From: Mycobacteroides salmoniphilum
Lineage (GTDB): Bacteria; Actinomycetota; Actinomycetes; Mycobacteriales; Mycobacteriaceae
DNA length: 64,000 bases
Direction: 5' to 3'
Assembly (NCBI RefSeq): GCF_004924335.1
Contig: NZ_CP024633.1
Span: 2,232,001 to 2,296,000 of the forward strand
Positions 11,642 through 56,531 of this stretch are shown piece by piece. The position numbers were made by a program, and so were the translations under genes. The notes beneath the pieces are model-generated. The model saw only the letters and a list, made by a program, of their open reading frames with translations. It was not told where the DNA came from and did not search any database. Every line of letters starts with the position of its first letter. Within the stretch, counting starts at the first letter, position 1.

Positions 11642-12478
11642 TCAAACACCGTCCGGCAGTGAGGAAACCATGTGCTCCCATGCCTGGTGCAGCCGGGCCG
11701 TGATAGGCCCGGTCTGCGTAATGGCGGTGACACAACGGTGGCTGTGGTCGTACAGCTCCACCGAGGAGGTCAGCCCCTGGGTGCCGTACGCCTGCGTTAC
11801 CCAGCTTTCGGCGATGAACACCGGATCCATGGCGTACCGCGAGGCACCGAAGATGACGGCGATATGTGCACCCGCCTGTTCGACCATCGCGGCGTGGCCA
11901 CGGTGCAACTGGACACAGCCTCCGCCGGGAACCGCGACGGTAAACGGCATGTCCACATCGACGAGGTGGGCCAGGAGATGAGGCACAACTCCGGAATCGA
12001 TCGTGCGGGCGCCGGTAAAGGGGAGCACGCGGTAACGCCCGGGGGTGAGGGCGTCGAGATGGGTGAGCTGATCGGTGTCACGCCAGCTGACGTCCGACCA
12101 GTCCGTGACAGGGAATGCCTCCGGATCGGCCGCCGACGCCAGTTCGAGGGCGCTGACCGTCAGGGGGTCCGAGAGCGGCGTGAGATAGGCACGGTGGGTG
12201 CCCGTGTCACCGACTATCGTCAGTCCCCGCGGAGCCAGGAACGCGTCGCGGACGAGGGCCGGATTCAGCCGGAGCGCAACGTACTCGTCATCGCAGCTGA
12301 GCGCATCGCCGGGAAATGAGGGGTCAAGGTACTCGCCGGTGTGGCTCAGCAGGGCGGCGTCGTTCGCGGTGACCGCGACCACCGTGCCGAGAGCGGGTAG
12401 CGCTTCGGCGATGGCCCTGGGCCCCGCCACGATTCGCCGGGCGGGGCAGTGCTCGCAACGTCGGCCGTCAGTACACAT
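11642..12478 (-). CDS. HemS/ChuX-like heme-handling protein with N-terminal Cys motif
   Basis: A 278-residue protein. The second half follows the heme-degrading factor pattern (HemS/HmuS/ChuS repeats): MPFTVAVPGGGCVQLHRGHA, then FIAESWVTQAYGTQGLTSSV and ELYDHSHRCVTAITQTGP. The N-terminus carries a compact Cys cluster, MCTDGRRCEHCPARR, which could bind a metal or Fe-S cluster. The ATG overlaps the end of the diflavin reductase gene by 11 bases, so the two are translationally coupled. This suggests that the reductase supplies electrons here or that all three gene products work together. Family assignment is by pattern only. Confidence 0.6.
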   Translation of the reverse strand: MCTDGRRCEHCPARRIVAGPRAIAEALPALGTVVAVTANDAALLSHTGEYLDPSFPGDALSCDDEYVALRLNPALVRDAFLAPRGLTIVGDTGTHRAYLTPLSDPLTVSALELASAADPEAFPVTDWSDVSWRDTDQLTHLDALTPGRYRVLPFTGARTIDSGVVPHLLAHLVDVDMPFTVAVPGGGCVQLHRGHAAMVEQAGAHIAVIFGASRYAMDPVFIAESWVTQAYGTQGLTSSVELYDHSHRCVTAITQTGPITARLHQAWEHMVSSLPDGV

Positions 12479-14210
12479 CGCGGACGTACCGCTTTTCCCG
12501 CTTGAGTGTGTTCACGTACTCAGAGGCTTCGTCGGGGCTCAAGCTGCCGTGCTCACCGACGATCTCGTGCAGTGCCTTGTCCACATCCTTGGCCATGCGC
12601 GTGGCATCGCCACACACATAGAAGTGCCCACCGTCCTGGAGCCACGTGAACAGATCCCGGCCGTGTTCGCGCATCCGCGTCTGTACGTAGACCTTCTCCG
12701 CCTGATCGCGGGAGAAGGCCAGGTCAAGGCGGTTAAGGAGGCCGGAGGCATGCCAGCCGTCGAGCTCGGTCTCGTAGATGTAATCGTGGTCCCGGTGCTG
12801 GTCACCGAAGAACAGCCAGTTACGGCCACTGGCACCACGGTGCTCACGTTCCTGCAGGAACGCCCGGAACGGCGCTACGCCGGTGCCGGGACCGACCATG
12901 ATCATCGGAGCGTCGTCGTCGCTGGGCACCCGGAATGACTTGTTGGGCTGCAGGAAGATTCGGCCGCTGCTGCTGCGGTCTGCCAGGAAGGTGGAACACA
13001 CGCCGCCGCGCTCGCGGCCCAGGCTCTGGTAGCGGACGCTGGCCACCGTCAGGTGGATGCGGTCGGGATGAGCCAGCGCGCTGGACGAGATCGAGTAGGC
13101 GCGGTGCGGAAGCGGCTTGAGGAGTCCGACGAACTCTTCAAGGCTCAGCGCATCCCCGCCGATGCGAAGGATGTCCAGGATGTCCTTGCCGTACAGCCAG
13201 GCGTCCAGCACCTCCTTCACCCCGCCACGGAAGGCGTGTGAGAACTCCTCGCTCTCCGCACGGCTCTCCACCTCGCTCAACAGGTCCCGTGACGGGGTGC
13301 TGATCTCGTACCGGGTGCCCAGCAGCTCGCCCAACGGCTCACCGTCGACAAGCGTGCCGACCGAGACACGGAAGTGATCGGCGATCGCCTCCACGAGTGC
13401 CGGGTCGTTCTCCGCGATGACCGCGAGGGCATCGCCGGCCTCGTACGCGATTCCGCTGTCGGCGAGCGCGAACTCGTAGTGTCGTATCTCCTTGTCCGAA
13501 CCCGCCCGTGAGAGCAGCCGGTTGACCCGCAGCTCCGCCGAGAATGGGTTCTTTCGGGTCCAGCCGGATCGCGCCGCGATACTCGGCGGGGGAGTACCGG
13601 GACCGCCGCTGGCCCCGGCCAGGGTGGCCAGGCTTCCCACCGCCCCCTGGACCCATTCCGCGGCCTGCACCTCGTAGTCGATATCGCAGTCGCTGCGCCC
13701 CACCACCCGGCTCGCGCCGAGCTGCTCGAGCCGGGTATCGATGAGCTTGCCCGCCTGGCAGAAGCCGTCATAGCTGGTATCGCCGAGCGCGAGCACTCCG
13801 TAGGACACGCCCTCGAGCCGCGGCGCCAATGTCGAAGACAGCGCCTCCCAGAACAATTCGGCATTGTCGGGCATCTCGCCCTCGCCATAGGTGGACGTGA
13901 CGATGAGGACATACTTCAGCCCGGCGAATTCGTCGAGTGCTATCTCGTCGAGTCCGCTGACCGTGGCGTCGAACCCCTGCGCCTTGGCGGCCGCCGCGAT
14001 GTCACCCGCCACGCCCTCGGCGTTGCCGGTCTGTGTTCCGTAGAGGACCCGCAGCGGCGGGCGCGGGGCCGCCAGGTCTGCGGTGGCCGGCGGAGGCGGA
14101 GCTGCCAGGTTCATGGCAAGGCGGGAATGAAGCCCCGCCAGGAAGCCCGAGAGCCAGGCGCGCTGGTCCTCGTTGAATGGGGCGTCTTCGGGAATGTAGG
14201 CGATCTTCAT
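12468..14210 (-). CDS. CysJ-like NADPH diflavin reductase (glutamate synthase-linked)
   Basis: A 580-residue FMN/FAD reductase of the sulfite reductase alpha/P450 reductase type. The flavodoxin domain begins at about residue 54 (LYGTQTGNAEGVAGD, then STYGEGEMPDNAELFW). The FAD module contains HRAYSISSSAL. NADPH binding shows MVGPGTGVAPFRAFLQE, and the C-terminus YVCGDATRMAKDVD leads to YVRDVY. Such enzymes pass electrons from NADPH through FAD and FMN to a partner. No sulfite reductase hemoprotein is adjacent. Instead the gene starts seven bases after the glutamate synthase stop and overlaps the HemS-like gene, so its partner may be the GltB-like protein. Confidence 0.9.
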   Translation of the reverse strand: MKIAYIPEDAPFNEDQRAWLSGFLAGLHSRLAMNLAAPPPPATADLAAPRPPLRVLYGTQTGNAEGVAGDIAAAAKAQGFDATVSGLDEIALDEFAGLKYVLIVTSTYGEGEMPDNAELFWEALSSTLAPRLEGVSYGVLALGDTSYDGFCQAGKLIDTRLEQLGASRVVGRSDCDIDYEVQAAEWVQGAVGSLATLAGASGGPGTPPPSIAARSGWTRKNPFSAELRVNRLLSRAGSDKEIRHYEFALADSGIAYEAGDALAVIAENDPALVEAIADHFRVSVGTLVDGEPLGELLGTRYEISTPSRDLLSEVESRAESEEFSHAFRGGVKEVLDAWLYGKDILDILRIGGDALSLEEFVGLLKPLPHRAYSISSSALAHPDRIHLTVASVRYQSLGRERGGVCSTFLADRSSSGRIFLQPNKSFRVPSDDDAPMIMVGPGTGVAPFRAFLQEREHRGASGRNWLFFGDQHRDHDYIYETELDGWHASGLLNRLDLAFSRDQAEKVYVQTRMREHGRDLFTWLQDGGHFYVCGDATRMAKDVDKALHEIVGEHGSLSPDEASEYVNTLKREKRYVRDVY

Positions 14211-14217
14211 GGCTTCT

Positions 14218-17200
14218 TCACGTGGTCAGGAGGGACGGTCCGGAGAGGGCGACGACAGGCAACGCTTGATGTGCGAACAGCTCTTCGAAGGAAGGCAAAC
14301 GGCCGATCTTGTCCAGGTTCTTGGCGCTCTGGTAGAGGATCCAGCCATAGGTGCCGGGGCTGTCCATCGACAGGACGTTGCGCTGGTTCAGCGCGTCCTT
14401 GTAGTCGGTGAGGCGCTTGTCCGCGATGAGCACGGCCAAGTCCTCGTCGCTGTATCCGTCGATCGCCTCCCGGGCATACTTCTGCAGCTTTTGGATCAGG
14501 AAAAAGTCCTCGGTGAGCACGAGATTGCGCACCGCTTTGTCGATCCGCGGATCCGTCACGTTCGTGATGCTCGGCATTCTCGACAGGGCGAGCTGCTGCG
14601 CCATGTTCAGGACCGTGTAGGTGTTGAGCAGCGCGTACATGCCCTCGGTATCGGTGTCGCCATAGGCGGGCACCGATCCGCCGAGGACATCGCGCCGGTC
14701 GCGATACGACCGCTTCAACTTATGCACCTGGTACCCGGCCAGGGCGGCGGTGAGCTCGTCCAGCAGCTCCTTGCGTGTCTTGCCGTGCAGAATGGCGTCG
14801 GAATCCTGGTATTGCAGCAGAGCCCGCGACATCGTATAGACCAGGTGCTCTCGGGTGGACTGCCAATCATCAAGCAAGGCTTGACCTCTGGCTGATCCGG
14901 TGGCCGAGACATGCCACTCGAGCAGGATGCGTGCGGCCGCCTCGTGGAATGGCGCATCGGTGACGGGCAGTACCAGCACCGAGTCGGTGCTCACCTTCGA
15001 CGGCAGTTCGCCCTGTGGGTCGTACTGGTACAGGAATCCGCCGCTCATCCCGTTCGCAACGCCCTTACCGAACCCACCGATGTTCAGAACAGCGCCGTTT
15101 GTCATGTATTCGCACAGGAATTCGCCGACTCCTTCGACCACTGCTGTGGCACCCGAGTTCCGAACGGCGAAGCGGTCCCCGGCCTGGCCCTCGACAAAGA
15201 GTCGGCCGCCGGAGGCGCCGAACAGTGCGAAGTTACCGATCAGAACGTTGCCTCCGACAGCATCGGAACCGCCGCCCGGCGAGCGCACCGTGATCGTGCC
15301 ACCGCAGGCACTCTTGCCGACGCCGTCATTGCAGGTGCCCGTATGCGTGAGCACCATGCCGTCGTTACAGAAGACGCCGTAGCTCTGACCCGCCGAACCG
15401 GTGGTGGTGATGGTGACGCTCTCCGGCAGCAGATAGTGGCGGCCGCGCTCATCGGCGGCGACCGCGGATCCGCTTGCCCCCTGGTAGTTGAGCATCCGCT
15501 CGATGTCGATCGCGAACTGCCCGCCGACGCTCTTGTTCTGATTGGTCAACCGCATGGGCGGCAGTACCGCGCCGTCAAGGTCGAGCTGGGCGGCGAACGC
15601 GTCGTCCACCGAGTAGTCCTTCTCCATGTACACGGGGTTGTCGACTACGAATTCCTCTGCCACCGCAAGCATTCGGCGCAGATCGAGGGTGCCGATGCTC
15701 GAGGGATGGTCCAGTAGATGCAGCAGGTCGCTGCGCCCACGCGCTTCGCGCAGTGTCCGCAGGCCAAGCGCCGCCAGGATCTCGCGCACCTCGTGCGCGA
15801 TGTTCAGCAGATACTGCGCGAGTGCGCGTGGGTCACCCTCGAACACCTCGGCGTTGGTCGTCAGCCCGGCGGGGCACTTGATATTGCAGTTCTTGGCCAT
15901 CACGCACTTGAGCATCATCAACGCGGTGGTTCCGAACTCGAAGCTGTCCGCGCCCAGCAGCGCCGACTTGATGACGTCACTGGCGGTCTGGTGCGCACCC
16001 GAGCAGCGCAGCACCACCTTCTGCCGGATTCCATTGGCACAGAGCGCCTGATGCACTTCCGCCACGCCGATCTCGGCGGACCGGCCCGCATACTTCAGGC
16101 TCGTCACGGCCGCGGCACCGGTGCCGCCGGTGTTTCCGGCGACGTTGATGACGTCGGCGCCGGCCTTGGCGACACCCACCGCGATCGTGCCGATGCCCTC
16201 CGAAGACACCAGTTTCACGATTACCCGGACGCGCGCCGCCTTGCAATCGTGGATGAGCTGGGCAAGGTCCTCGATCGAGTACGTGTCGTGATGGGGTGGG
16301 GGAGAAACGAGTTCAACGCCAGGGGTGCCGCCGCGGGCCGCCGCGATCTGCACGGTCACCTTGGGTGCCGGGAGTTGGCCGCCCTCCCCGGGTTTGGCGC
16401 CCTGACCGATCTTGATCTCCAACTCCCGCAGCATCGGGTCGGCGAGGTAACCCGCCCACACCCCGAAGCGGCCCGAGGCGAACTGCTTGATGCGAGAGCC
16501 ACGGATGGTTCCGTAACGGCTGATGTGCTCTCCGCCTTCGCCGCAGTTCGATAGGCCGCCAACCAGGTTGGTTCCGTGTGCCACCGCCTCATGTGCGGGA
16601 GCAACCAACGCGCCGTGGCTCATGGCTCCTGATGTCAGGGTCGGCGTGATCTCGCTGGCCGGCTGCACAGAGGACAACGGAACCGACTCCGGCGCCGTCC
16701 TGATCTTCGCCAGGTAGATCGCCGCCTGACCTGTCGCACTCACCCGCAGCTCGTCGCCGACGATCTCCTGGCCGGTGATGTCGCCACCGAACCGCACGCG
16801 CAGCGAGGCCGCCAGCGCCGCCAGCCGTTCGTGGGTGTGCGAGAGCCGCAGCACGAACTGACCGTCCGTCTGCTGGCAGGACAGGCCGCGCACCTGAAAG
16901 TCGTTGTTCCCAAACCGTGCGAATTGCCCCATTTCCCTGCGGAACTCATTGGCCGTACGCACAAAGTTGACATCAGCGGGCAGGGCCAGCACGTCGCGAA
17001 GAGCCGCCGGGCGCCGGGTGCGTTCCGTGTTCATCGCCCGGACGAAGCTGCGGTACCCGGGCGTGATGTCGAAACTGTCGACGGCACGTGTGGGCAGCTC
17101 GTCAAAGCTGTTGTTGCGGTATGCACCATCGTCCAGGCCGAACGCACCCTCGAGCTGGTGCAGTGGCAGCAGCCGCAGGTACGTGGGGTCGGCCATGTCG

Positions 17201-19722
17201 GGGTTCTCCGGGCGTGCGTCGTCCCCGAATGAGATCTCTTCCTCGGTCATGTCCACGAACCCGCGGACGGCTGTTGTCCCGTACGAGTGGCCCGCGCCTT
17301 CGGCCCGCTCCTTGAACAGCCCAAGTAACGGAACGTCGTTCTCACCTGTCACCTCCAGTGCCCGCGCATGCCAGTCGGCGACGGCGGCCGCAAGCGTGGA
17401 GAATCCAACACCGGCGACCGGTGACGTCACATTGGGGAAGTACCTGTGCAACACCGGATCTGACGTATCCAGATAATTCGGCTCGAAGAACTCTCCACCG
17501 ATGTAACTCTCGACGGTACAGAGACCGACCCGACCCATCGTCTTCATCAGGGATTTCTCGGCAGCCTTGGCGAAATGCTTGAACGCCTTATCGGCGTCGG
17601 CACCGTACTTTTCCTCTGCCCGCATCTGCACCGCGAGCGGATACACGGCCGAAGCCCCGAAACCCAGCACGGCGGCCACATGATGCGAGGAGCACAGTTG
17701 TCCACTCTCAGCGATCAGCGAAACGCGCAGCCGCAGGCCTTCCTCGATCAGCCGCTGGTTGATGGCAGAGATCACGATGATGAGGGGCATCGCGGCGCGG
17801 TCGCTGGAGACATGGCGATCGGAGATGACGGCAATACCGCCGGTCTCCCGGGCGAATTCCTCTACCGCATCGCATAGTTCGTCGATGGCCCGCACGATCC
17901 GCTCGGCGTTCGACTCAGGGTCGGACAGCTCGACTCGGTAGCGCATCCCGAAACGCCGCACCGGGGTGCCTTGCTGCTCGCGGATCTTGAGCATGTCGAG
18001 ATGGGTGAGGACGGGGGAGGGCACCACGATCTGCGGTGCTGACTGTGCTCCGCTGTTGGGTTTCGCGCCGAGCGCTACACGCAAGGTCATTCCATCCGCC
18101 TCGCGGATGGAGTCCAGCGGCGGGTTGGTCACCTGAGCGAACCGCTGCGAGAAGTATTTCGCAACGCCGCCTTCCTGATTGGAGAGCGCGTTGATGGCCG
18201 CGCCGTATCCCATCGCGGAGATCTTCTCCTGGCCAGTGGCCAGCATCGGATCCATCAGAAACTTGAAGCTCTCCTGGTTGAGCGAGTAGGCCACGTACCG
18301 CTGGTGCCGGTCGAGGTCGCCGTCATACCGGGCCGGCGAACCCTGACCCAACGGGGGTACATGGGGCAGATCAGCGATGTTCACGCGGGCCTGCGCCAGC
18401 ATGGTGCGGTAATCATGCCGTGCTGCAAGCTTTTCCAGCGCTTCGATGGTGCCGTAGGACCGACGCTCGGCGTGATCGTAGTAGCGCATGCCGCCGGCCT
18501 CGATACGGCCTCGCTCGAGCACCGTGTTGGGGTCAAAGTAGATCTGCCCGGCCTCGGACATCACACCCAGGTACTCGGCCGTCTCGACGGTGCGCAGCGG
18601 CCGAAGGCCCAGCCGGTCCAGGCGCGCGCCGATAATGGTGCCGTCTCCGAAGATCAACGCGGCCGGGCCGTCGTTCTTCTCCTCATAGAGGCTGAAGTAC
18701 TCCAGCATGGCCGTCACCTCGGGCGAGAGTGTCGTGTCGTTCTCCCACGCGGGCGGCATCATCGCGACAACGGCGGTGACGAGGTCGAGGTCATCCTCGA
18801 GCACACGGCTCTGCAGGGTCTGGTCCAGCCTGCAGCTGTCCGATTGCCCCACCGGGCGAATGATCGCTCGATTACGTGCGCGTGCCATCGCGTTCTCGGA
18901 CAGGCGATTTTTCTTGTCCGTGTTGAGCTCGCCGTTGTGCGCCATCAACCGGAACGGCTGGGCCATGGTGGCGTTCGGCGCGGTGTTCGTCGAGAACCGG
19001 GTGTGGAAGAACATCGAGTGCACTTCCATGCGCGGGTCGGATAGGTCACTGAAGTAGGGCACCACCTCATTTGAGTTGAGGCGCCCCTTGAGGACCTGAG
19101 TCTGCGTGCTGAGCGAGAGTGGGTACAGCCCTAGCAATTCCGGGCGTGTGTAGCCGATAGCTTCGATCGCCATCAGCGCCTCGTGGGTCTTGCGGTCGGA
19201 GTCGGAGAGGAACACCCACTGCCGTATCGGCAGCTGGTATCTGATGGCCGCCGGACGGATCGCCGCATTGTTCACCGGCACATCGCGTTTGAGCAGAATC
19301 GTGAATCCCTGGGCGAGCAGTGCCTGCTCGATGACTGCCTCGGCCTCGGGGTGGAACGCCGGGTCGTTGGGCAGGAAGAAGTTGCCCACGCCGAACTGGC
19401 CCGGCTGCAAGTCGGGATCGCCCGTCAATTCGGAGAAGAAGCGCAAGGACAGGTCCATATTGACACCGGCTCCGTCACCGACACCTTCGGAAGACATCCC
19501 ACCGCGGTGCGGAACGGCGCAGAGCGCCTCGTGGAGCATCCGCACGACATCGTGTGTCTGGATGCCGTCCTTGCGGGTCAGGAAGCCGACACCGCAGCTA
19601 TTTTTCTCCTGGCTCTGGTCATACAGCCCGTTCAGCCGATTCTCCTCACCCAGCGCCGCGCACGGCGTATCCAGCGTGTGACGTTGGGTCTCTCGTTCGT
19701 TGAGCGAACCCGCCCTGACCAG
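14218..19722 (-). CDS. Glutamate synthase large-subunit-like protein (5' end unresolved)
   Basis: A protein of at least 1,775 residues with the full GltB layout. It has a class II glutaminase (FFHTRFSTNTAPNATMAQPF, MAHNGELNT), a central domain (SDRHVSSDRAAMPLIIVISA), an FMN-binding synthase barrel (PGEGGQLPAPKVT, IVKLVSSEGIGTIAVGVAKA, AGNTGGTGAA) and a C-terminal GXGXG domain (GGNVLIGNFALFGASGG). Iron-sulfur cysteines are spaced C-x5-C-x3-C (15874-15906). The nucleophile motif NSCGVGF lies at 19594-19596, upstream of the first standard start (GTG 19545). The frame stays open to a TGA at 19774 with no ATG, GTG or TTG, so a CTG (19722 chosen) or a frameshift must be invoked. The operon has no GltD. 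Confidence 0.85.
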   Translation of the reverse strand: MVRAGSLNERETQRHTLDTPCAALGEENRLNGLYDQSQEKNSCGVGFLTRKDGIQTHDVVRMLHEALCAVPHRGGMSSEGVGDGAGVNMDLSLRFFSELTGDPDLQPGQFGVGNFFLPNDPAFHPEAEAVIEQALLAQGFTILLKRDVPVNNAAIRPAAIRYQLPIRQWVFLSDSDRKTHEALMAIEAIGYTRPELLGLYPLSLSTQTQVLKGRLNSNEVVPYFSDLSDPRMEVHSMFFHTRFSTNTAPNATMAQPFRLMAHNGELNTDKKNRLSENAMARARNRAIIRPVGQSDSCRLDQTLQSRVLEDDLDLVTAVVAMMPPAWENDTTLSPEVTAMLEYFSLYEEKNDGPAALIFGDGTIIGARLDRLGLRPLRTVETAEYLGVMSEAGQIYFDPNTVLERGRIEAGGMRYYDHAERRSYGTIEALEKLAARHDYRTMLAQARVNIADLPHVPPLGQGSPARYDGDLDRHQRYVAYSLNQESFKFLMDPMLATGQEKISAMGYGAAINALSNQEGGVAKYFSQRFAQVTNPPLDSIREADGMTLRVALGAKPNSGAQSAPQIVVPSPVLTHLDMLKIREQQGTPVRRFGMRYRVELSDPESNAERIVRAIDELCDAVEEFARETGGIAVISDRHVSSDRAAMPLIIVISAINQRLIEEGLRLRVSLIAESGQLCSSHHVAAVLGFGASAVYPLAVQMRAEEKYGADADKAFKHFAKAAEKSLMKTMGRVGLCTVESYIGGEFFEPNYLDTSDPVLHRYFPNVTSPVAGVGFSTLAAAVADWHARALEVTGENDVPLLGLFKERAEGAGHSYGTTAVRGFVDMTEEEISFGDDARPENPDMADPTYLRLLPLHQLEGAFGLDDGAYRNNSFDELPTRAVDSFDITPGYRSFVRAMNTERTRRPAALRDVLALPADVNFVRTANEFRREMGQFARFGNNDFQVRGLSCQQTDGQFVLRLSHTHERLAALAASLRVRFGGDITGQEIVGDELRVSATGQAAIYLAKIRTAPESVPLSSVQPASEITPTLTSGAMSHGALVAPAHEAVAHGTNLVGGLSNCGEGGEHISRYGTIRGSRIKQFASGRFGVWAGYLADPMLRELEIKIGQGAKPGEGGQLPAPKVTVQIAAARGGTPGVELVSPPPHHDTYSIEDLAQLIHDCKAARVRVIVKLVSSEGIGTIAVGVAKAGADVINVAGNTGGTGAAAVTSLKYAGRSAEIGVAEVHQALCANGIRQKVVLRCSGAHQTASDVIKSALLGADSFEFGTTALMMLKCVMAKNCNIKCPAGLTTNAEVFEGDPRALAQYLLNIAHEVREILAALGLRTLREARGRSDLLHLLDHPSSIGTLDLRRMLAVAEEFVVDNPVYMEKDYSVDDAFAAQLDLDGAVLPPMRLTNQNKSVGGQFAIDIERMLNYQGASGSAVAADERGRHYLLPESVTITTTGSAGQSYGVFCNDGMVLTHTGTCNDGVGKSACGGTITVRSPGGGSDAVGGNVLIGNFALFGASGGRLFVEGQAGDRFAVRNSGATAVVEGVGEFLCEYMTNGAVLNIGGFGKGVANGMSGGFLYQYDPQGELPSKVSTDSVLVLPVTDAPFHEAAARILLEWHVSATGSARGQALLDDWQSTREHLVYTMSRALLQYQDSDAILHGKTRKELLDELTAALAGYQVHKLKRSYRDRRDVLGGSVPAYGDTDTEGMYALLNTYTVLNMAQQLALSRMPSITNVTDPRIDKAVRNLVLTEDFFLIQKLQKYAREAIDGYSDEDLAVLIADKRLTDYKDALNQRNVLSMDSPGTYGWILYQSAKNLDKIGRLPSFEELFAHQALPVVALSGPSLLTT

Positions 19723-19778
19723 CGCTCCGCATGGTCGCGACCCGACAGACGCCGGTAACCCGGCCTCCTGGGGTCAGT

Positions 19779-19797
19779 TAAACCAAGCCTAGCCTAA
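19779..19797 (-). promoter_or_regulatory. IdeR/DtxR-like iron box upstream of the glutamate synthase operon
   Basis: On the coding strand the site reads TTAGGCTAGGCTTGGTTTA. It matches the 19-base IdeR consensus TTAGGTTAGGCTAACCTAA at 13 positions, with the left half and centre nearly perfect and the right half degenerate. It lies directly before the operon that includes a HemS-like gene. Control by iron through IdeR is inferred; no promoter hexamers were assigned. Confidence 0.45.
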
Positions 19798-22877: not shown

Positions 22878-24494
22878 GTGACCGCCCAGCCGGACTTCTC
22901 GTTGATCGTCGGCTATGGCACCGATATGGGCAATGCCGAGGACGCCGCCATGTCGTTCTCCGAGGCCCTGGAAGAGGCCACCGGCATCAAGTCCGAGGCG
23001 ATCGAACTCAACCAGGTCGACGTCGCGGATCTGCGATCGGCATCGCATTTCGTTGTCGTGGTGTCGACATTCGGCGACGGTGAATTTCCCGATAATGCGC
23101 TGCTGTTCTGGGAGGCGATCAGCGCCGAGGCCGCCGATCGGCTGGAGCATCTGAATTTCTCGGTGCTCGCGCTCGGTGACAGCAGCTACGAATTCTTCTG
23201 CAACGCGGGTCTGCTGCTCGACCAACGTCTGGAGGCCCTGGGCGCCGCCCGGTTGACCGAACGCGTTGACATCGATGGGCCTTATCTCCAGCAGTCGAAG
23301 GAGTGGACCACCGATCTGGTCAAGCGTCTGGCGGCGGGACACATCAGTACCACCGCAACGCCTGTGGCGACGGAGGCGCCCGCACCGCCCAAGCGTGACC
23401 GCAACGAGCCCGTCGAGGCGCGGTTGCTCGTCAACCGGCTGCTCACCACTGGCGAATCCGACAAAGAGGTACGCCATTACGAAGTAGACCTTGCCGGCTC
23501 CGGGATCTCGTATGAGGCAGGCGATTCGATTGCCGTGCACGCGACCAATGATCCCGCGCTCGTCGCGGCGATACTTGCCGAACTGGGCGTCGGGGCTGAC
23601 CATCGGGTGGCCGGTCACGACGAGCCGCTCGCCGAACTACTGTCCGACCATCTCGAAATCCGCACTCCCTCAAGGACTCTTCGCGCCTTGGTCGCCACCC
23701 GCACGGACAACATGGACGCGGTCGCCGCGCTCGGAGGCGACGTCACTCCCGCGCCCGGTTCCTGGTTGTACGGAAAGGATGTCCTCGACCTGATCAGGTT
23801 GGGGGAGTTGACCGTTGACGAGCTGTTCGACAATCTGCGCCCGCTTCAGTTCCGTGATTACTCCATTGCATCGAGCCCGGCCCTGCACCCCGAGACCGTG
23901 CACCTGACAGTGGCGACTATTCGGTACGCCGATGCCGATCGCACCTATGGGGGTGTGGCATCGACATTTCTGGCCGACCGCGGGCAGACGATGCGGGTGC
24001 ATCTGCGACCCAACCACACCTTCCGGCTGCCGGCGGCCGACGTGCCGATCATCATGATCGGGCCGGGAACCGGGATCGCTCCCTTCCGCGGCTTCCTCCA
24101 GGAGCGCCAGGCCGCGGGAGCGCCCGGGCGTTCGTGGCTGTTCTTCGGAGACCGGCGCCGCGCCACTAGCTTCCTCTATGGCGAGGAGCTTCAGGGCTTC
24201 GTCGATTCGGGCATACTGACCCGGCTCGACCTCGCGTTCTCACGAGACGGCGCCGACGGTCAGCCGAAACAGTATGTCCAGCATCGCATGCTGGAGAGCG
24301 AGGCGGAGCTATTCGCCTGGCTGCAGGACGGCGCGTACGTGTTTGTGTGCGGCGACGCCGAGAACATGGCCAAGGATGTCGACGCGACGTTGCACGAGAT
24401 CGTGGCCCGCTGCGGCGGCATGGACGCCGCAGCGGCGCACGCGTACGTCAACGACCTCATCAAGAGCCACCGGTACGTACGCGACGTCTACTGA
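22878..24494 (+). CDS. CysJ-like diflavin reductase with variant FMN loop
   Basis: A 538-residue NADPH-FAD-FMN reductase. The flavodoxin domain starts at the N-terminus. Its phosphate loop reads VGYGTDMGNAED rather than the usual GTQTGNAE, so the Gln-Thr pair is replaced by Asp-Met. TFGDGEFPDNALLFWEAI is intact. The FAD/NADPH half is canonical: FRDYSIASSPALHP, MIGPGTGIAPFRGFLQE, YVFVCGDAENMAKDVD and C-terminal YVRDVY. It is monocistronic in appearance, with no sulfite or nitrite reductase next to it. The GTG start follows GAGGGAG. The partner is unknown, and the FMN loop change suggests altered FMN affinity. Confidence 0.88.
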   Translation: MTAQPDFSLIVGYGTDMGNAEDAAMSFSEALEEATGIKSEAIELNQVDVADLRSASHFVVVVSTFGDGEFPDNALLFWEAISAEAADRLEHLNFSVLALGDSSYEFFCNAGLLLDQRLEALGAARLTERVDIDGPYLQQSKEWTTDLVKRLAAGHISTTATPVATEAPAPPKRDRNEPVEARLLVNRLLTTGESDKEVRHYEVDLAGSGISYEAGDSIAVHATNDPALVAAILAELGVGADHRVAGHDEPLAELLSDHLEIRTPSRTLRALVATRTDNMDAVAALGGDVTPAPGSWLYGKDVLDLIRLGELTVDELFDNLRPLQFRDYSIASSPALHPETVHLTVATIRYADADRTYGGVASTFLADRGQTMRVHLRPNHTFRLPAADVPIIMIGPGTGIAPFRGFLQERQAAGAPGRSWLFFGDRRRATSFLYGEELQGFVDSGILTRLDLAFSRDGADGQPKQYVQHRMLESEAELFAWLQDGAYVFVCGDAENMAKDVDATLHEIVARCGGMDAAAAHAYVNDLIKSHRYVRDVY

Positions 24495-24923: not shown

Positions 24924-25736
24924 CTAAGCGCGCAGCGACAGGATCTGCTCAATCTCGCGCCGCAGCCGTTCGTGACGAAACGGTTTGAAACCGAGGGCGG
25001 CGCCGGTACGTGCCGACAGCCGCGCGAACAGGTCCACCGTCCGCCGCAGCGTGTTGACGGTGTCGTCGGCATCGAAATGCGCCCAACAGCCCTCGACTTC
25101 GTCGCGCACATCAGCATCCATCCAGCTGTTCATGCGGGTTCCCAGGTAGCGCGTGTCATGCGCGGTGCCATACCGAACGCGGTGGTCCCACTCAATGATG
25201 CGCAGCAGCTCTTCCTTGAGGTCTTGGTCGCGTAGTTTCGCCGACCAGAGCTCCTCGCGTACTACGGCTTTCGCACACATCAGCGCCGCGGCGTAGCCCC
25301 AGTGCACGCTCTCGTCGAACTCCTCCTCGTCGGGCAGGTCGCCCTCCGGTGCGTTCACCGCGCTCGGGTCAGGTGCCTGACCGTCCTTGTCGACCAACAC
25401 GTGGAAAGGCCGATCATGCTCCATGTCGGCGAGATCCTCGGCGGGAATCAGGGTGAAGTCGAGCTTGCCGCCGGCGTAGTAGATCAGGCGGGTCTGATAC
25501 CCGGAGTCCTCGTCTTCCAGACGCTCGACCACAAGAACTTCGCCCAGCGATGCCCACCACGAATCCTCGTCCGCCAGGTCATCGGGCTCGGACGCGTAGA
25601 GCTCGATGTCCCGATCCGACAGAGGGTGAACGTCCCCCTTGGCCGCGGAGCCGGTGACGATGACCGCCCGGACGGCATCCACCTCGGTCGCCCATGCGAC
25701 CAACTTCTCAAGCACCTCACCGTAATTCACACCCAT
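24924..25736 (-). CDS. AadK/AadE-type aminoglycoside 6-adenylyltransferase-like protein
   Basis: A protein of about 270 residues in the streptomycin 6-adenylyltransferase family. The nucleotidyltransferase motif is VTGSAAKGDVHPLSDRDIEL (G-S-x9-D-x-D), and the C-terminal helical domain holds ALMCAKAVVREELWSAK and LGTRMNSWMD. Family members inactivate streptomycin by AMP transfer; many chromosomal homologs have no proven drug activity. The ATG at 25736 is only one base from AAGGA. The GTG at 25730 (VNYGEVLEKL) sits seven bases from it and is the likelier start. It is probably transcribed with the GxNP-repeat gene 80 bases upstream. Confidence 0.85.
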   Translation of the reverse strand: MGVNYGEVLEKLVAWATEVDAVRAVIVTGSAAKGDVHPLSDRDIELYASEPDDLADEDSWWASLGEVLVVERLEDEDSGYQTRLIYYAGGKLDFTLIPAEDLADMEHDRPFHVLVDKDGQAPDPSAVNAPEGDLPDEEEFDESVHWGYAAALMCAKAVVREELWSAKLRDQDLKEELLRIIEWDHRVRYGTAHDTRYLGTRMNSWMDADVRDEVEGCWAHFDADDTVNTLRRTVDLFARLSARTGAALGFKPFRHERLRREIEQILSLRA

Positions 25737-25816
25737 ATCCTTGGCTGCCCGGCGTGGAGTTCTCAAGGGCTCTTCCGCGTGTCGGTCAGGTGTTTCGCGC
25801 GCGTCGCGGGTGTCCG

Positions 25817-26092
25817 CTAGCCGGCGTTGTTCTTGTTCGTGCCATCCGGCACGAATGGGTTGACCCCGGTTGGCGTCAACGGATTGGCGCCCTCGTAGGT
25901 GGGCTGATGGGCGCCTTGCTGGTACTCGACATCGCCCGGGGCAAGACACGGATCGAAGTCGGTCGAACCGACGCTCGGCTGGTTCGCGTAACACACGGGC
26001 GGGGGCTCCGGTGCCGCCTCGGCCACCGGGGACCCGATCAGCGTGACTACGCCGACGACCATTGCCGAACTCACTGCCACAAATACCTTCAT
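25817..26092 (-). CDS. Small secreted protein with GxNP repeats (copy 3)
   Basis: A 91-residue protein. The signal peptide is MKVFVAVSSAMVVGVVTLIG, with likely cleavage after VAEAA. The mature part has two Cys (PVCYANQ, FDPCLAPG) followed by repeats EGANPLTP, TGVNPFVP and DGTNKNNAG. The order and spacing match the proteins at 7262 and 7521: STDFDPC here corresponds to TDAFDYC in copy 1. GGAGAGG lies seven bases before the ATG at 26092. It stands upstream of the AadK-like gene. Function unknown. The recurrence shows a small exported family in this genome. Confidence 0.6.
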   Translation of the reverse strand: MKVFVAVSSAMVVGVVTLIGSPVAEAAPEPPPVCYANQPSVGSTDFDPCLAPGDVEYQQGAHQPTYEGANPLTPTGVNPFVPDGTNKNNAG

Positions 26093-52262: not shown

Positions 52263-52436
52263 TCGTTGTCTCTCTTCCTCATCACGCACTCCATCCACGA
52301 TTCTGTCGCAGAGGGCGCCGGATTGCATTCGACTGCCGATGCTTACATGTGCACCGGGCGCACTGTGAGGTGGGTTTTTCCTGCACATAGCGTCCACGGA
52401 AACCCTGGGGAAACACATCTCGGCGACAGTGGTGAC

Positions 52437-55400
52437 ATGGCCGGTCCAGCGGATACGAGCACGTCGACACGTACGGCGTGTTCGTACTGCGGGGTGGGCT
52501 GCGGGATCGAGGTCCAGACGAAGCCTGGCCCGACGGGTCCGGTGATCGCACGCGTTTCGGGCGACAAGCTTCATCCGACCAATTTCGGCCGCTTATGCAC
52601 GAAGGGCGCCACCCATGCCGAGCTCATGGCGGCGGTCGATGGTCGGCTGACAACCGCTTTGGCCCGCCCGTCGCGTGGTGCCGAACTTGTCGAGACGCCC
52701 GTTGATGTCGCCGTCACCGAGGCGGGGCAGAGACTGCGCTCAATTCTCGATGAGCACGGGCCCGACGCCATCGCGCTGTACGTATCGGGCCAGATGTCGA
52801 TCGAGGCTCAGTACCTGGCCAATAAGCTGGCCAAGGGATTCATCCGCACCGTACACATTGAGTCGAACTCGCGACTCTGCATGGCCAGCGCCGGGACTGG
52901 ATACAAACAGTCGCTCGGGGCAGATGGCCCGCCGGGGTCGTACACCGATTTCGATTGCGCTGACGTATTTTTCGTCATCGGCGCGAATATGGCGGATTGC
53001 CATCCGATCCTATTCCTACGGATGGCTGACCGGCTCAAAGCCGGTGCAAAACTGATCGTCGTGGACCCGCGGCGCACGGCGACCGCCGACAAAGCCGACC
53101 TGTTCTTGCAGATTAATCCCGGCACCGACTTGGCACTTCTCAATGGGCTGCTGCATCTTTTGGTGAAATCCGGAGATATCGACGAGGAGTTCATCGCCGA
53201 GCACACCGAGGGCTGGGCGGCGATGCCCGAGTTCCTGGCCGACTATCCACCCGAGGTGGTAGCCGAGATCACCGGCATTCCCGAATCCGATATCCGCGCG
53301 GCCGCCACGATGATTGGTGAGGCCGGCGAGTGGATGACGTGCTGGACCATGGGCTTGAACCAAAGTACCCACGGCACCTGGAACACCAACGCGATATGCA
53401 ATCTTCACCTCGCGACCGGTGCGATTTGTCGGCCCGGCAGCGGCCCCATGTCCTTGACCGGTCAACCCAATGCCATGGGCGGGCGCGAGATGGGTTACAT
53501 GGGTCCGGGCCTGCCCGGTCAGCGATCGGTGGTCAGCCCGGAAGACCGGGTGTTCGTGGAGACGGAGTGGGGGCTCGCTCCGGAGACCATCCGGACCGAG
53601 GTGGGCCCAGGAACCGTCGCCATGTTTGAGCACATGACCGCGGGAGAGATCAAGGCGTGCTGGATCATCTGCACGAATCCCGTGGCAACAGTGCCTAACC
53701 GGGGAAACACAATCACCGGGCTGGAGACCGCGGAATTGGTCATCACCCAGGACACCTATGCGGCCACGGCCACAAATCACTACGCGGACATCGTCCTACC
53801 TGCCGCATTGTGGGCCGAAGCCGACGCGGTGATGATCAACTCAGAACGCAACCTCACCTTGCTCCAACGCTCGGTCGAGCCGATCGGCGAAGCCCGACCC
53901 GACTGGCAATTGATCTGCCAGGTCGCTACCGCCATGGGATTTGGTGACCAGTTCAGCTACACCTCCAGCGAGGACGTGTTCAACGAGATCCGTCGGTTCT
54001 GGAATCCTAAAACGGGCTATGACCTGCGCGGTGCCAGCTACGGGCGCCTGCGCGAAACTCCGTTGCAGTGGCCCTGCCCGCCGGACGATGCCAACGATCG
54101 CCACCCCATTCGCTACCTCAACGACGGCGTCAGCCAGAGCCTTTTCGAAGATGCCGCCGGGCGCCGGCCGCGGTTGGCGTTCGCGACTCCCTCGCGCCGT
54201 GCGGTCTTCCACCCGCGCCCGCATATGGATGCGCGGGAGCTGCCCGACGACGACTACCCGTTCATCCTGAACACGGGCCGCCTGCAACACCAATGGCACA
54301 CCATGACCAAGACAGGCCAGGTGGCCAAACTCAACAAGCTCAACAGTGACCCCTTCGTCGAAATTCATCCCGACGATGCCGCGGGACTGAACATCACTGA
54401 CGGGCAACCGATCGAACTACAGTCGCGGCGCGGACGAGCCGTGCTGCCCGCCGTCGTCACCGATCGGGTGCGGCCCGGAAACTGTTTTGTGCCCTTCCAC
54501 TGGAACGACGAGCACGGCGAGTACCTCGCGATCAATGCGCTCACGAGTGATGCAGTGGATCCTGACTCGCTACAGCCCGAGCTCAAAGTATGTGCGGTCA
54601 GCATGCGGCCCACGGTGGTTATCCAGAAACCGGACCGACCGGAGGCAACGTCTATGCACCCTGTCGCTGAAGCCCTCGGCCTGATGTCGCAGCCGATTCC
54701 CACTCTTGCCGAGAGCGAACAGGCCTATCTATCAGGATTTTTCACCACGCTCGACCAAGGCGCGGAGGGTGTTCCCGTCCTGCCCGCAGGGGCACCGGTC
54801 GGTACTGCGGTACGACTATGGATCGATGGCGCGCTGGCCGGCATGTATTCCCGTACCACCGGTGGCGTGACGGTCCCGGGCGGCCTACCATTGCCTGCCG
54901 CCCGGCCAACAGCATTGGTGCTGTGGGCATCTCAGACGGGCAACGCCGAGGAATACGCCACCAATCTGGCGGCGCAGCTGGGGTCCACGGGCACCCCGCC
55001 GCGGATCGTCAACATGGATGACTGCGGGCTCGACGACCTCGCGGCGGCCACCGATGTCCTCATCGTCACCAGCACATTCGGAGACGGTGGCCCGCCGGAT
55101 AATGGCGCTGGCTTCTGGGACCGCCTGCATACCCCCGAGGCGCCGCCATTGACGGGGATCCGTTTCGCCGTGTTGGGTATTGGCGACCGTGCTTACGAGA
55201 ACTTCTGCGGCCACGCCAAATCCATCGACGAACGGCTGGCCAGCCTGGGCGCGGTCCGGCTGATAGACCGGTTGGACTGCGAGATATACGACGACGAACC
55301 CCTGGCGCAATGGGCCCGACAGGTGACCAGCCTGGTCACCACGCAGGAGGACACCGTCGCGGTAGCAGCACCGGTCACCGCAAGCCCGTGCCCATCGACC

Positions 55401-56531
55401 GCAGCCACGGCCGAGCCGTTCACCCGCAACAGCCCCATCGCGGCGCGCCTGAGCCGCAACACCGTGCTGACGCCTCGGTCCTCCTCAAAGGAGGTACGGC
55501 ACTTTGGATTCGATATCTCCGAGCACGGCGTCACCTACAGTGCCGGCGACGCCCTCGGGGTGTGCCCAACCAATTCCGACAGCGCCGTCGCCGCATGGCT
55601 TGCCAGCACCGGGCTGCGCGCCGACGACATCGTCGAGGTCGACGGCGCAGAACGGACCTTGCGCGATGCCCTGACGTTCGCGTACGACATCGGCCGGGTA
55701 ACGCCCAATCTGCTGAGTTTCCTCGCCGACAACATCACAGACACCGCGGCGGCCAAGGATCTACGCGACGCACGAAAAGACCTTGCATCGTGGGCGATTG
55801 GCCGCAACGGAGTGGATGCGGTGCACGAATTCCCCGTGCGCGCCACCGCCGAGCAGTGGCAAGACGTACTGGTGCGGCTGACTCCGCGCTGCTACTCGAT
55901 TTCCTCCAGTCCGCTTGTCAGCCCCCATGAAATCCAGCTGACGGTGTCGGTGGTCCGCTACCGGGGAACCGCCGGCGCCGAGCGCGGGGGAGTGTGCTCA
56001 ACATTTCTCGCCGATCGCGCCGACGACACGCGGGTTCCCGTGTTCCTGCAGAAGTCCCCGCATTTCCGCCCCCCGGAAGAGTCGCGGATTCCGATGATCA
56101 TGATTGGCCCGGGGACCGGTATCGCGCCGTTTCGGGGATTCCTGCATGAGCGGCGCGCACTCGGCCATACCGGCCGAAACTGGCTCTTCTTCGGTGATCA
56201 GCATGCGGCACAACACTTCTACTATCGTGACGACCTGTCCGCAATGACTGATGACGGCTTCCTGTCCAAGCTCGACGTCGCCTTCTCCCGCGATCAGAAG
56301 GACCGGGTCTATGTGCAGCACAAGATGCGGGACAACGGCGCCGAGCTATGGGCATGGTTGCAGGACGGCGCTCACCTCTACGTATGCGGCGATGCCTCTC
56401 GAATGGCCAAAGACGTCGACACCGCGCTGACCTCAATCATCGAAAAGCACGGGCGGCTCTCCGCGGAGGGTGCACACGACTACAAACGCGAACTGGTCGC
56501 CAGCAAGCGGTATCTCCGGGACGTCTACTAG
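52437..56531 (+). CDS. nasN: Assimilatory nitrate reductase fused to diflavin reductase (NasN-like)
   Basis: A 1,364-residue fusion. Residues about 15-720 are a molybdopterin bis-MGD oxidoreductase with an N-terminal 4Fe-4S motif C15-x2-C18-x3-C22-x31-C54 (ACSYCGVGCGIEV ... GRLCTKG). Molybdenum-domain segments include AGEWMTCWTMGLNQSTHGTW and MSLTGQPNAMGGREMGYMGP. A linker leads to a flavodoxin domain at about 826 (LVLWASQTGNAEEYA) and FAD/NADPH modules to the end (RCYSISSSPL, MIGPGTGIAPFRGFL, CGDASRMAKDVD, RYLRDVY). Electrons would flow from NADPH through FAD, FMN and Fe-S to Mo in one chain. This matches NasN of M. smegmatis. No nitrite reductase is next to it. Confidence 0.9.
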   Translation: MAGPADTSTSTRTACSYCGVGCGIEVQTKPGPTGPVIARVSGDKLHPTNFGRLCTKGATHAELMAAVDGRLTTALARPSRGAELVETPVDVAVTEAGQRLRSILDEHGPDAIALYVSGQMSIEAQYLANKLAKGFIRTVHIESNSRLCMASAGTGYKQSLGADGPPGSYTDFDCADVFFVIGANMADCHPILFLRMADRLKAGAKLIVVDPRRTATADKADLFLQINPGTDLALLNGLLHLLVKSGDIDEEFIAEHTEGWAAMPEFLADYPPEVVAEITGIPESDIRAAATMIGEAGEWMTCWTMGLNQSTHGTWNTNAICNLHLATGAICRPGSGPMSLTGQPNAMGGREMGYMGPGLPGQRSVVSPEDRVFVETEWGLAPETIRTEVGPGTVAMFEHMTAGEIKACWIICTNPVATVPNRGNTITGLETAELVITQDTYAATATNHYADIVLPAALWAEADAVMINSERNLTLLQRSVEPIGEARPDWQLICQVATAMGFGDQFSYTSSEDVFNEIRRFWNPKTGYDLRGASYGRLRETPLQWPCPPDDANDRHPIRYLNDGVSQSLFEDAAGRRPRLAFATPSRRAVFHPRPHMDARELPDDDYPFILNTGRLQHQWHTMTKTGQVAKLNKLNSDPFVEIHPDDAAGLNITDGQPIELQSRRGRAVLPAVVTDRVRPGNCFVPFHWNDEHGEYLAINALTSDAVDPDSLQPELKVCAVSMRPTVVIQKPDRPEATSMHPVAEALGLMSQPIPTLAESEQAYLSGFFTTLDQGAEGVPVLPAGAPVGTAVRLWIDGALAGMYSRTTGGVTVPGGLPLPAARPTALVLWASQTGNAEEYATNLAAQLGSTGTPPRIVNMDDCGLDDLAAATDVLIVTSTFGDGGPPDNGAGFWDRLHTPEAPPLTGIRFAVLGIGDRAYENFCGHAKSIDERLASLGAVRLIDRLDCEIYDDEPLAQWARQVTSLVTTQEDTVAVAAPVTASPCPSTAATAEPFTRNSPIAARLSRNTVLTPRSSSKEVRHFGFDISEHGVTYSAGDALGVCPTNSDSAVAAWLASTGLRADDIVEVDGAERTLRDALTFAYDIGRVTPNLLSFLADNITDTAAAKDLRDARKDLASWAIGRNGVDAVHEFPVRATAEQWQDVLVRLTPRCYSISSSPLVSPHEIQLTVSVVRYRGTAGAERGGVCSTFLADRADDTRVPVFLQKSPHFRPPEESRIPMIMIGPGTGIAPFRGFLHERRALGHTGRNWLFFGDQHAAQHFYYRDDLSAMTDDGFLSKLDVAFSRDQKDRVYVQHKMRDNGAELWAWLQDGAHLYVCGDASRMAKDVDTALTSIIEKHGRLSAEGAHDYKRELVASKRYLRDVY

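What the first reader, a model, noticed from the sequence alone, without database searches (positions are those of the whole stretch)
11642..19797. Glutamate synthase, diflavin reductase and HemS-like protein form one operon behind an IdeR-like box
A GltB-type protein with glutaminase, FMN barrel and GXGXG domains has no GltD. Seven bases later lies a CysJ-like NADPH-FAD-FMN reductase, and the HemS-like gene overlaps that by 11 bases. The reductase may replace GltD as electron donor to the Fe-S/FMN site, giving a new glutamate synthase architecture. Alternatively the three act in iron or heme metabolism, as the IdeR-like site (13/19) and HemS-like gene suggest. The sequence shows gene order and domains; the electron path is inference.
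Basis: partly seen in the sequence, partly recalled or inferred. Interest (0 to 1): 0.8.

Follow-up and report, generated by a model that had tools for sequence, protein, structure and literature searches.

The report
Diflavin-linked glutamate synthase operon
This operon most likely makes a form of glutamate synthase, a central nitrogen-assimilation enzyme, that gets its electrons from an iron-free flavin reductase instead of the usual iron-sulfur partner; the same gene pair occurs in many unrelated bacteria and in some of them is the only glutamate synthase found.

Summary
A GltB-like gene (14218-19635, minus strand, CTG start), a CysJ-like diflavin reductase 7 bases on and a HemS-like gene overlapping it by 11 bases form one unit behind an IdeR-like site (19779-19797). 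All 80 loci fetched with the reductase carry the GltB-like gene just upstream; all 23 found with the GltB-like C-terminal region carry the reductase just downstream (3 genomes in both sets). Hosts are Actinomycetota and Pseudomonadota. In 15 of 41 genomes tested (9 Erwiniaceae, 5 methanotrophs, Pseudovibrio) no canonical GltB was found, nor GltD. In 10 Erwinia-type loci the pair sits where E. coli K-12 has gltBD. GltB-like proteins form a separate clade with a [3Fe-4S] motif one residue shorter and two extra regions. In Actinomycetota an IdeR-like site tracks the HemS-like gene, suggesting an iron-sparing isozyme; the window's own genome also keeps canonical gltBD. Electron transfer, product and regulation are inferred, not shown. 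Ten paper searches found no description.

The parts
19779..19797 (-). IdeR/DtxR-like operator, 13 of 19 to the (recalled) consensus
   Evidence: Only match of 13/19 or more in the window; 19 of 33 actinobacterial loci have one upstream of the same gene, as do 13 of 22 loci with upstream sequence in the second set, 3 of whose genomes were in the first set
14218..19635 (-). GltB-like large subunit, 1805 aa from CTG start (1775 aa from GTG 19545)
   Evidence: Pfam domains; homologues of 1805 aa with the same N-terminus; alignment to own canonical GltB; SD-like GAGGAG upstream of CTG
19594..19596 (-). Codon of the presumed catalytic Cys1 of the glutaminase domain (motif CGVGF)
16624..17433 (-). 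Region between central and FMN domains that is about 140 residues longer than in the own canonical GltB
   Evidence: Pairwise alignment; family alignment A2, 38 sequences
15874..15906 (-). [3Fe-4S]-type motif C-x5-C-x3-C (canonical spacing is C-x5-C-x4-C)
   Evidence: 120 of 120 listed homologues and 74 of 74 window and locus proteins against 10 of 10 canonical GltB with x4
14221..14958 (-). C-terminal region (residues 1560-1805): its first part is shared with canonical GltB, the rest is a helical extension of about 175 residues
   Evidence: Alignment A1; lengths; AlphaFold2 model mean pLDDT 87, all helical; PDB sequence search matches GltB only at profile positions 10-53; Foldseek best E 0.62
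12468..14210 (-). CysJ-like NADPH diflavin reductase (FMN + FAD), 580 aa; proposed electron donor in place of GltD
   Evidence: Pfam and NCBIfam; adjacency in all loci fetched; tree
11642..12478 (-). HemS/ChuX-like protein, 278 aa; optional third gene
   Evidence: Pfam PF05171 54.8 bits; family alignment A3

Best explanation
The operon encodes a diflavin-linked glutamate synthase. The GltB-like subunit hydrolyses glutamine at its N-terminal Cys, channels ammonia to the FMN barrel and reduces 2-iminoglutarate to glutamate. Electrons come from NADPH through the FAD and FMN of the CysJ-like reductase and enter at the altered [3Fe-4S] site. The family-specific insertion and C-terminal helical region are candidate docking sites. 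This replaces GltD, which carries two [4Fe-4S] clusters, so the enzyme needs less iron. In the window's genome and many other actinobacteria the operon is an extra isozyme that is probably derepressed by IdeR/DtxR on iron limitation and travels with a HemS-like protein, probably for heme or iron handling. In Erwiniaceae and some methanotrophs it has taken over as the only glutamate synthase found. Shown: gene order, domains, motifs, distribution, locus position, conserved site. Inferred: physical complex, electron path, product, regulation, iron saving. I put the reductase-to-GltB link at about 0.85 and the iron-sparing role at about 0.6.
For: Adjacency: 80 of 80 loci fetched with the reductase have the GltB-like gene just upstream; 23 of 23 loci found with the C-terminal region alone have the reductase just downstream (3 of these genomes are also in the first set). 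Co-divergence: distance correlation 0.946 over 74 pairs, not corrected for shared ancestry. Replacement: canonical GltB not found in 15 of 41 genomes; GltD (TIGR01318) not found in those 15, found in 4 of 4 comparators beside canonical GltB. Locus: 10 Erwinia-type loci carry the pair between arcB and sspB-sspA-rpsI-rplM-zapE-yhcB-degQ-degS-mdh-argR, the gltBD position in E. coli K-12; an eleventh keeps arcB only. Glutaminase and FMN-barrel motifs kept. No CysI-type partner found in the own genome. Iron: IdeR-like site and HemS-like gene go together, 16 of 17 against 3 of 16 loci, and 11 of 11 against 1 of 8 in genomes not used before. On Ketogulonicigenium plasmid 1 siderophore-uptake genes follow the pair. 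Caulobacter lowers canonical gltBD under iron limitation (PMC3751524, passages).
Against: No biochemistry. The GltB-like subunit keeps three Cys, so it is not iron-free. Among proteobacterial loci only Pseudovibrio L051 has a Fur-type site that beats its shuffles, and RirA/Irr-type patterns were uninformative (4 of 12 and 1 of 12 loci), so iron regulation is not general. The pair is patchy: 24 of 151 genomes of the family, and 0 of the 9 other sampled genomes of the own genus. The five methanotrophs and Pseudovibrio have a large NAD-GDH, and all nine Erwiniaceae have a PF00208 match at E 6e-77 or better, so the pair is the only GOGAT found there but not provably the only route to glutamate. 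The 4 GltD comparators are themselves below the TIGR01318 cut-off, and the second GltD model did not complete. The reductase passes one 'sulfite reductase subunit alpha' model, NF004859 (458 against 432 bits). An unpaired Paracoccus reductase falls inside the paired group on a long branch; that group has 89/94 support, below the starred level. One of the 23 second-set loci (L123) lacks an internal stretch of the GltB-like gene. Loci are not phylogenetically independent.
Confidence: 0.8

Rival explanations
1. The GltB-like enzyme is a diflavin-fed amidotransferase that aminates a different 2-oxo acid, for example for a siderophore or another metabolite, and is not a glutamate synthase.
For: Separate clade on a long branch, extra insertion and C-terminal region, and in actinobacteria it exists beside canonical GltBD.
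Against: Canonical FMN-barrel and glutaminase motifs are kept, and it is the only GltB found in 15 of 41 genomes; eight of the nine Erwiniaceae among these are among the 10 loci at the gltBD position.
Confidence: 0.1
2. The operon is a heme/iron-utilisation unit: the diflavin reductase reduces HemS-bound heme and the GltB-like protein has an accessory role.
For: HemS-like third gene and IdeR-like site; siderophore genes next door in Ketogulonicigenium.
Against: HemS-like gene counted in 17 of 33 actinobacterial loci and found in 4 of 45 proteobacterial loci, while GltB-like and reductase stay together in all 80 and 23; the HemS heme ligand (His196, recalled) falls in a gap of the alignment and no clearly matching His is conserved.
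Confidence: 0.06
3. The reductase serves another acceptor (sulfite, nitrite or nitrate reductase, P450) and its place behind the GltB-like gene is incidental.
For: CysJ-like reductases elsewhere lie beside CysI, NirA-family or P450 genes or are fused to nitrate reductase; the window holds two more, one of them fused to a molybdopterin oxidoreductase; the reductase passes the NF004859 'sulfite reductase subunit alpha' cut-off.
Against: Adjacency in 80 of 80 and 23 of 23 loci across phyla; those other reductases fall outside the paired group; the sulfite/nitrite reductases found in the own genome are a 605-aa protein closest to ferredoxin-nitrite reductase/NirA models, all below cut-off, and an 847-aa protein taken as NirB by size.
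Confidence: 0.02
4. The GltB-like protein is ferredoxin- or flavodoxin-dependent and the diflavin protein only recharges that carrier.
For: Fd-GOGAT is a GltB relative without GltD (recalled; PDB matches include Fd-GOGAT). In Rhodococcus koreensis L030 a 149-aa flavodoxin follows the reductase.
Against: None of the 20 neighbour proteins scanned is a ferredoxin or a small flavodoxin, though proteins under 70 aa were not called; the reductase has its own flavodoxin domain.
Confidence: 0.02

Closest known systems
Bacterial NADPH-glutamate synthase (GltB-GltD; Azospirillum, E. coli)
   Same: Class II glutaminase, central, FMN and GXGXG domains with the same core motifs; NADPH as likely source; same locus in 10 Erwinia-type loci
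   Different: GltD (FAD + two [4Fe-4S]; PMC8097209, passages) replaced by an FAD/FMN reductase; C-x5-C-x3-C instead of C-x5-C-x4-C; about 140 residues more before the FMN domain and about 175 more at the C-terminus than the own canonical GltB; separate clade
Ferredoxin-dependent glutamate synthase (cyanobacteria, plastids; 1llw/1ofd)
   Same: GltB-type subunit without a GltD partner (recalled; PDB match)
   Different: Here a diflavin reductase gene lies behind it; lower PDB match score than the best NADPH-type GltB (686 against 750 bits)
Assimilatory sulfite reductase flavoprotein CysJ
   Same: Flavodoxin, FAD and NAD domains in the same order; TIGR01931 586 bits and NF004859 458 bits, the latter over its cut-off of 432; best PDB match 6efv at 405.7 bits
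   Different: Below the TIGR01931 (668) and NF008197 (838) cut-offs; beside a GltB-like gene and not CysI; outside the branch with the three CysJ in the tree
HemS/ChuX/HutX heme-handling proteins
   Same: PF05171 match over the cut-off; weak match to Yersinia HemS structures (E 2e-5)
   Different: 278 aa against 345; N-terminal Cys motif CTDGRRCxxCP in the mycobacterial/Nocardia branch; HemS heme ligand not clearly conserved

Membership tests
Glutamate synthase (GltB family) | Class II glutaminase with N-terminal Cys, central, FMN and GXGXG domains | tested here: met
Glutamate synthase (GltB family) | Three Cys for a [3Fe-4S] cluster | tested here: met
   Three Cys kept, with one residue fewer between the last two, 120 of 120 and 74 of 74; the cluster itself is not testable here
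Glutamate synthase (GltB family) | Forms glutamate from glutamine and 2-oxoglutarate | not testable with these tools
   Indirect only: the only GltB found in 15 of 41 genomes
Canonical NADPH-GOGAT (GltBD) | GltD subunit beside GltB | tested here: not met
   Reductase in its place in all loci fetched; no GltD match in 15 genomes that have only this GltB
Canonical NADPH-GOGAT (GltBD) | GltB within the canonical clade | tested here: not met
   10 canonical and 23 GltB-like proteins fall on two sides of one branch, SH-aLRT 100
CysJ of sulfite reductase | Over the curated model cut-offs | tested here: inconclusive
   Below TIGR01931 (586 of 668) and NF008197 (470 of 838), above NF004859 (458 against 432)
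CysJ of sulfite reductase | CysI partner | tested here: not met
   GltB-like neighbour instead; the PF01077 search of the own genome found two proteins, neither of CysI type: the 605-aa one scores 163 against the CysI cut-off of 757, the 847-aa one was judged by size
HemS/ChuX | PF05171 domain | tested here: met
   Window protein 54.8 bits against 24; the Roseobacter-type relatives L045, L047, L050 and L096 stay below the cut-off
HemS/ChuX | Conserved heme-ligand His (position recalled) | tested here: inconclusive
   Falls in a gap of the alignment to 2j0p; no clearly matching conserved His
IdeR/DtxR regulon | 19-bp operator upstream, conserved in relatives | tested here: met
   19 of 33 and 13 of 22 actinobacterial loci
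IdeR/DtxR regulon | Derepression on iron limitation | not testable with these tools
   No expression data found

The most novel reading that the evidence does not exclude
A further class of glutamate synthase beside the GltD-linked and ferredoxin-linked ones: NADPH-driven with diflavin electron input, spread by horizontal transfer through Actinomycetota and Pseudomonadota, working as an iron-sparing isozyme under IdeR/DtxR control in some hosts and having displaced GltBD outright in Erwiniaceae and several methanotrophs.
Probability: 0.6. Interest if true: 0.82.

Novelty: new variant of a known kind. Interest (0 to 1): 0.72.

Why it matters
Glutamate synthase is a central enzyme of nitrogen assimilation, and the review I consulted describes its bacterial NADPH form with the Fe-S protein GltD (PMC8097209, passages; the word diflavin does not occur in its text). 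A widespread form fed by a diflavin reductase would change how nitrogen metabolism is annotated in Erwiniaceae, methanotrophs, rhizobia and mycobacteria, where database names such as 'glutamate synthase-related protein' and 'sulfite reductase subunit alpha' hide it. It would also give a concrete, testable case of an iron-sparing isozyme swap in central nitrogen metabolism, comparable to flavodoxin replacing ferredoxin (recalled).

Tried and rejected
Sulfite reduction as the reductase's role: rejected for lack of a CysI-type partner and because of reciprocal adjacency. HemS-like gene as core part: rejected, absent from many loci. General iron regulation: rejected; among proteobacterial loci only Pseudovibrio L051 (15/19) has a Fur-type site that beats its 60 shuffles, and RirA- and Irr-type patterns were uninformative. 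Sole route to glutamate in methanotrophs: weakened by a large NAD-GDH; papers on Methylococcus capsulatus and Methylomicrobium alcaliphilum also speak of GDH (PMC10623323, PMC6570963, passages). Fold of the C-terminal region: no convincing PDB match. First GltB tree held three wrong-frame rows; rebuilt with correct frames (a script in between failed). Defence-system models: no match. Phage collection: only matches under 60% identity. Ten paper searches found no description; I saw their listings, and passages of five papers (PMC3751524, PMC8097209, PMC10623323, PMC4658805, PMC6570963), none as a whole.

Rows dropped or judged: L026 (HemS-like match over its first 27 residues only) and L036 (truncated) were left out of the HemS/site count; L014 (a short HemS-like remnant) was counted as lacking the gene; that HemS list was set by hand. 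Five of 80 loci have no upstream sequence. Seven of 80 loci have no GltB match long enough for the alignment, which holds 73 loci and the window. For genome tests I chose 41 of 80 loci, then 19 and 15.
Full report
WHAT IS THERE. On the minus strand, window 11642-19635 holds three tightly packed genes: a GltB-like protein, a CysJ-like diflavin reductase 7 bases later, and a HemS-like protein overlapping the reductase by 11 bases. The GltB-like gene needs a CTG start at 19635 (GAGGAG just upstream) to include the N-terminal catalytic Cys; several homologues in public records start at the same place (for example P0001, 1805 aa). The window lies at G000:C1:2232001-2296000 of a 4.78-Mb single-contig genome; the closest named relatives by reductase are Mycobacterium sp. 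strains and Mycobacteroides (91-98% identity). That genome also has a canonical gltB-gltD at 70602-76497.

THE PROTEINS. Aligned to its own canonical GltB, the GltB-like protein keeps glutaminase motifs (CGV, HRG, RFSTNT, AHNGE) and FMN-barrel motifs (GAMS, ASGRFGV, QGAKPGEGGQLP, SPPPHHD, GGTGA), but has about 140 residues more before the FMN domain and about 175 more at the C-terminus. The cluster motif is C-x5-C-x3-C in 120 of 120 listed homologues (the best 120 of 4049 matches) and in 74 of 74 window and locus proteins, against C-x5-C-x4-C in all 10 canonical GltB examined. The C-terminal region folds in AlphaFold2 as a helical domain (mean pLDDT 87) with no convincing PDB fold match (best E 0.62). 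In a tree of 23 GltB-like and 10 canonical proteins the two groups lie on opposite sides of one branch (SH-aLRT 100; 23 of the 74 available GltB-like sequences were used). The reductase scores 586 bits against the CysJ model TIGR01931 (cut-off 668), but passes NF004859, 'sulfite reductase subunit alpha' (458 against 432).

CONSERVATION OF THE PAIR. The reductase was used to fetch 80 loci from a genome collection (best 80 of 283 relatives). In 80 of 80 a GltB-like gene lies just upstream. As the reverse test, the C-terminal region alone was searched in 151 genomes of the window's family. It matched 24 of 151, the own genome included, but none of the 9 other sampled genomes of the own genus. One of the 23 (L123) lacks an internal stretch of the GltB-like gene, and one (L118) is cut by a contig end. 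Distances of the two proteins correlate at 0.946 over 74 pairs, uncorrected for relatedness. In a tree of 39 of 81 paired reductases, four plasmid ones and outgroups, the paired ones form a 44-row group with 89/94 support that includes one unpaired Paracoccus protein on a long branch. CysJ, NirA-linked and nitrate-reductase-fused reductases form another group (100/99), and the second reductase of the window and an Arthrobacter one lie outside both.

REPLACEMENT OF GltBD. In 41 genomes chosen from the 80, a full-length canonical GltB (over 1600 bits) is present in 26 and was not found in 15: nine Erwiniaceae, Pseudovibrio stylochi and five methanotrophs. In those 15 no GltD match was found at E 1e-40 with TIGR01318; 4 of 4 comparators have one beside canonical GltB, though below the model's cut-off. 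In ten Erwinia-type loci the pair lies between arcB and sspB-sspA-rpsI-rplM-zapE-yhcB-degQ-degS-mdh-argR; an eleventh (L056) keeps arcB only. E. coli K-12 has gltBD at that position. A Methylococcaceae locus (L082) has canonical gltB-gltD directly upstream of the GltB-like/reductase pair. In Porticoccaceae L046 hemE follows the pair, as it follows gltBD in Pseudomonas (recalled). PF00208-type GDH gave no match in three methanotrophs, but a large NAD-GDH is present in all five methanotrophs and in Pseudovibrio, and all nine Erwiniaceae have PF00208 matches. The pair is therefore the only GOGAT found there, not provably the only route to glutamate. M. buryatense 5G can use nitrate, ammonia or urea as sole nitrogen source (PMC4658805, passages).

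IRON LINK. The window has a single IdeR-like match of 13/19 or better, at 19779-19797; five shuffled windows gave 0-3. Across 33 actinobacterial loci (711 kb, both strands) there were 46 matches, 40 of them directly upstream of the GltB-like gene, in 19 loci. Loci with the HemS-like gene have the site in 16 of 17 cases, those without in 3 of 16 (Fisher p 1.3e-5; relatives are not independent). In genomes not used before the figures are 11 of 11 against 1 of 8. On Ketogulonicigenium plasmid 1 the pair is followed by a 305-aa protein that aligns to the HemS-like one at 25% identity but only reaches E 0.028 with Pfam HemS, then AraC, a TonB siderophore receptor and siderophore ABC-transporter genes. 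Methylobacillus L032 has FecR and TonB-receptor genes upstream. Against generality: among proteobacterial loci only Pseudovibrio L051 has a Fur-type site better than its shuffles. Canonical gltBD is lowered in iron-limited Caulobacter (PMC3751524, passages), which gives an iron-saving isozyme a purpose.

MECHANISM. Canonical bacterial NADPH-GltS has FAD and two [4Fe-4S] clusters besides the [3Fe-4S] cluster and FMN of GltB, and electrons pass from FAD through the clusters to FMN (PMC8097209, passages). I propose NADPH to FAD to FMN in the reductase, then to the altered cluster and FMN of the GltB-like subunit, with the insertion and C-terminal region as candidate docking surfaces. That would save the two [4Fe-4S] clusters of GltD. 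None of the electron-transfer steps is shown here. A carrier between the two is not excluded: in Rhodococcus koreensis L030 a 149-aa flavodoxin follows the reductase.

WHAT IS KNOWN. Ten full-text searches found no paper describing a GltB paired with a diflavin reductase; the library holds open-licence papers only, and I saw listings and passages, no whole paper. Databases call the proteins 'glutamate synthase-related protein' and 'sulfite reductase subunit alpha' or similar. I rate it a new variant of a known kind.

Noticed in passing
window 22878-24494 (+): A second stand-alone CysJ-like diflavin reductase (538 aa, about 50% identical to the operon's), some 3 kb upstream of the operon on the other strand; its partner is unknown and it falls outside the GltB-paired group.
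   Followed up: partly
window 52266-56531 (+), and G000:C1:2201696-2203309: A molybdopterin oxidoreductase (nitrate-reductase-like) fused to a diflavin reductase in the window, and another reductase inside a 1297-aa frame about 30 kb outside it: four diflavin reductases within roughly 90 kb.
   Followed up: partly
L082:50-11743: Methylococcaceae MAG with canonical gltB-gltD directly upstream of the GltB-like/diflavin pair, possibly a snapshot of the replacement.
   Followed up: partly
window 11642-12478, N-terminus: The HemS-like protein starts with CTDGRRCxxCP, conserved in the mycobacterial/Nocardia branch; a possible metal-binding motif.
   Followed up: partly
L030:11805-12254: A 149-aa flavodoxin gene directly behind the reductase in Rhodococcus koreensis.
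   Followed up: partly
   Followed up: partly
L077, L078, L080: A zapE homologue lies downstream of the pair in three methanotroph loci; the older neighbourhood there was not worked out.
   Followed up: no
L099, L100, L104: Other CysJ-like reductases have non-CysI neighbours: glutamine synthetases and aldehyde dehydrogenase, a NirA-family protein, and glnA/glutamine amidotransferase/P450.
   Followed up: no
L026 and L120 (contigs of the same length): HemS-like gene matches only over its first 27 residues although the IdeR-like site is kept; possibly degraded in that strain.
   Followed up: no
window 24924-25994 (-): Nucleotidyltransferase weakly matching aminoglycoside 6-adenylyltransferase models, far below their cut-offs.
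   Followed up: no
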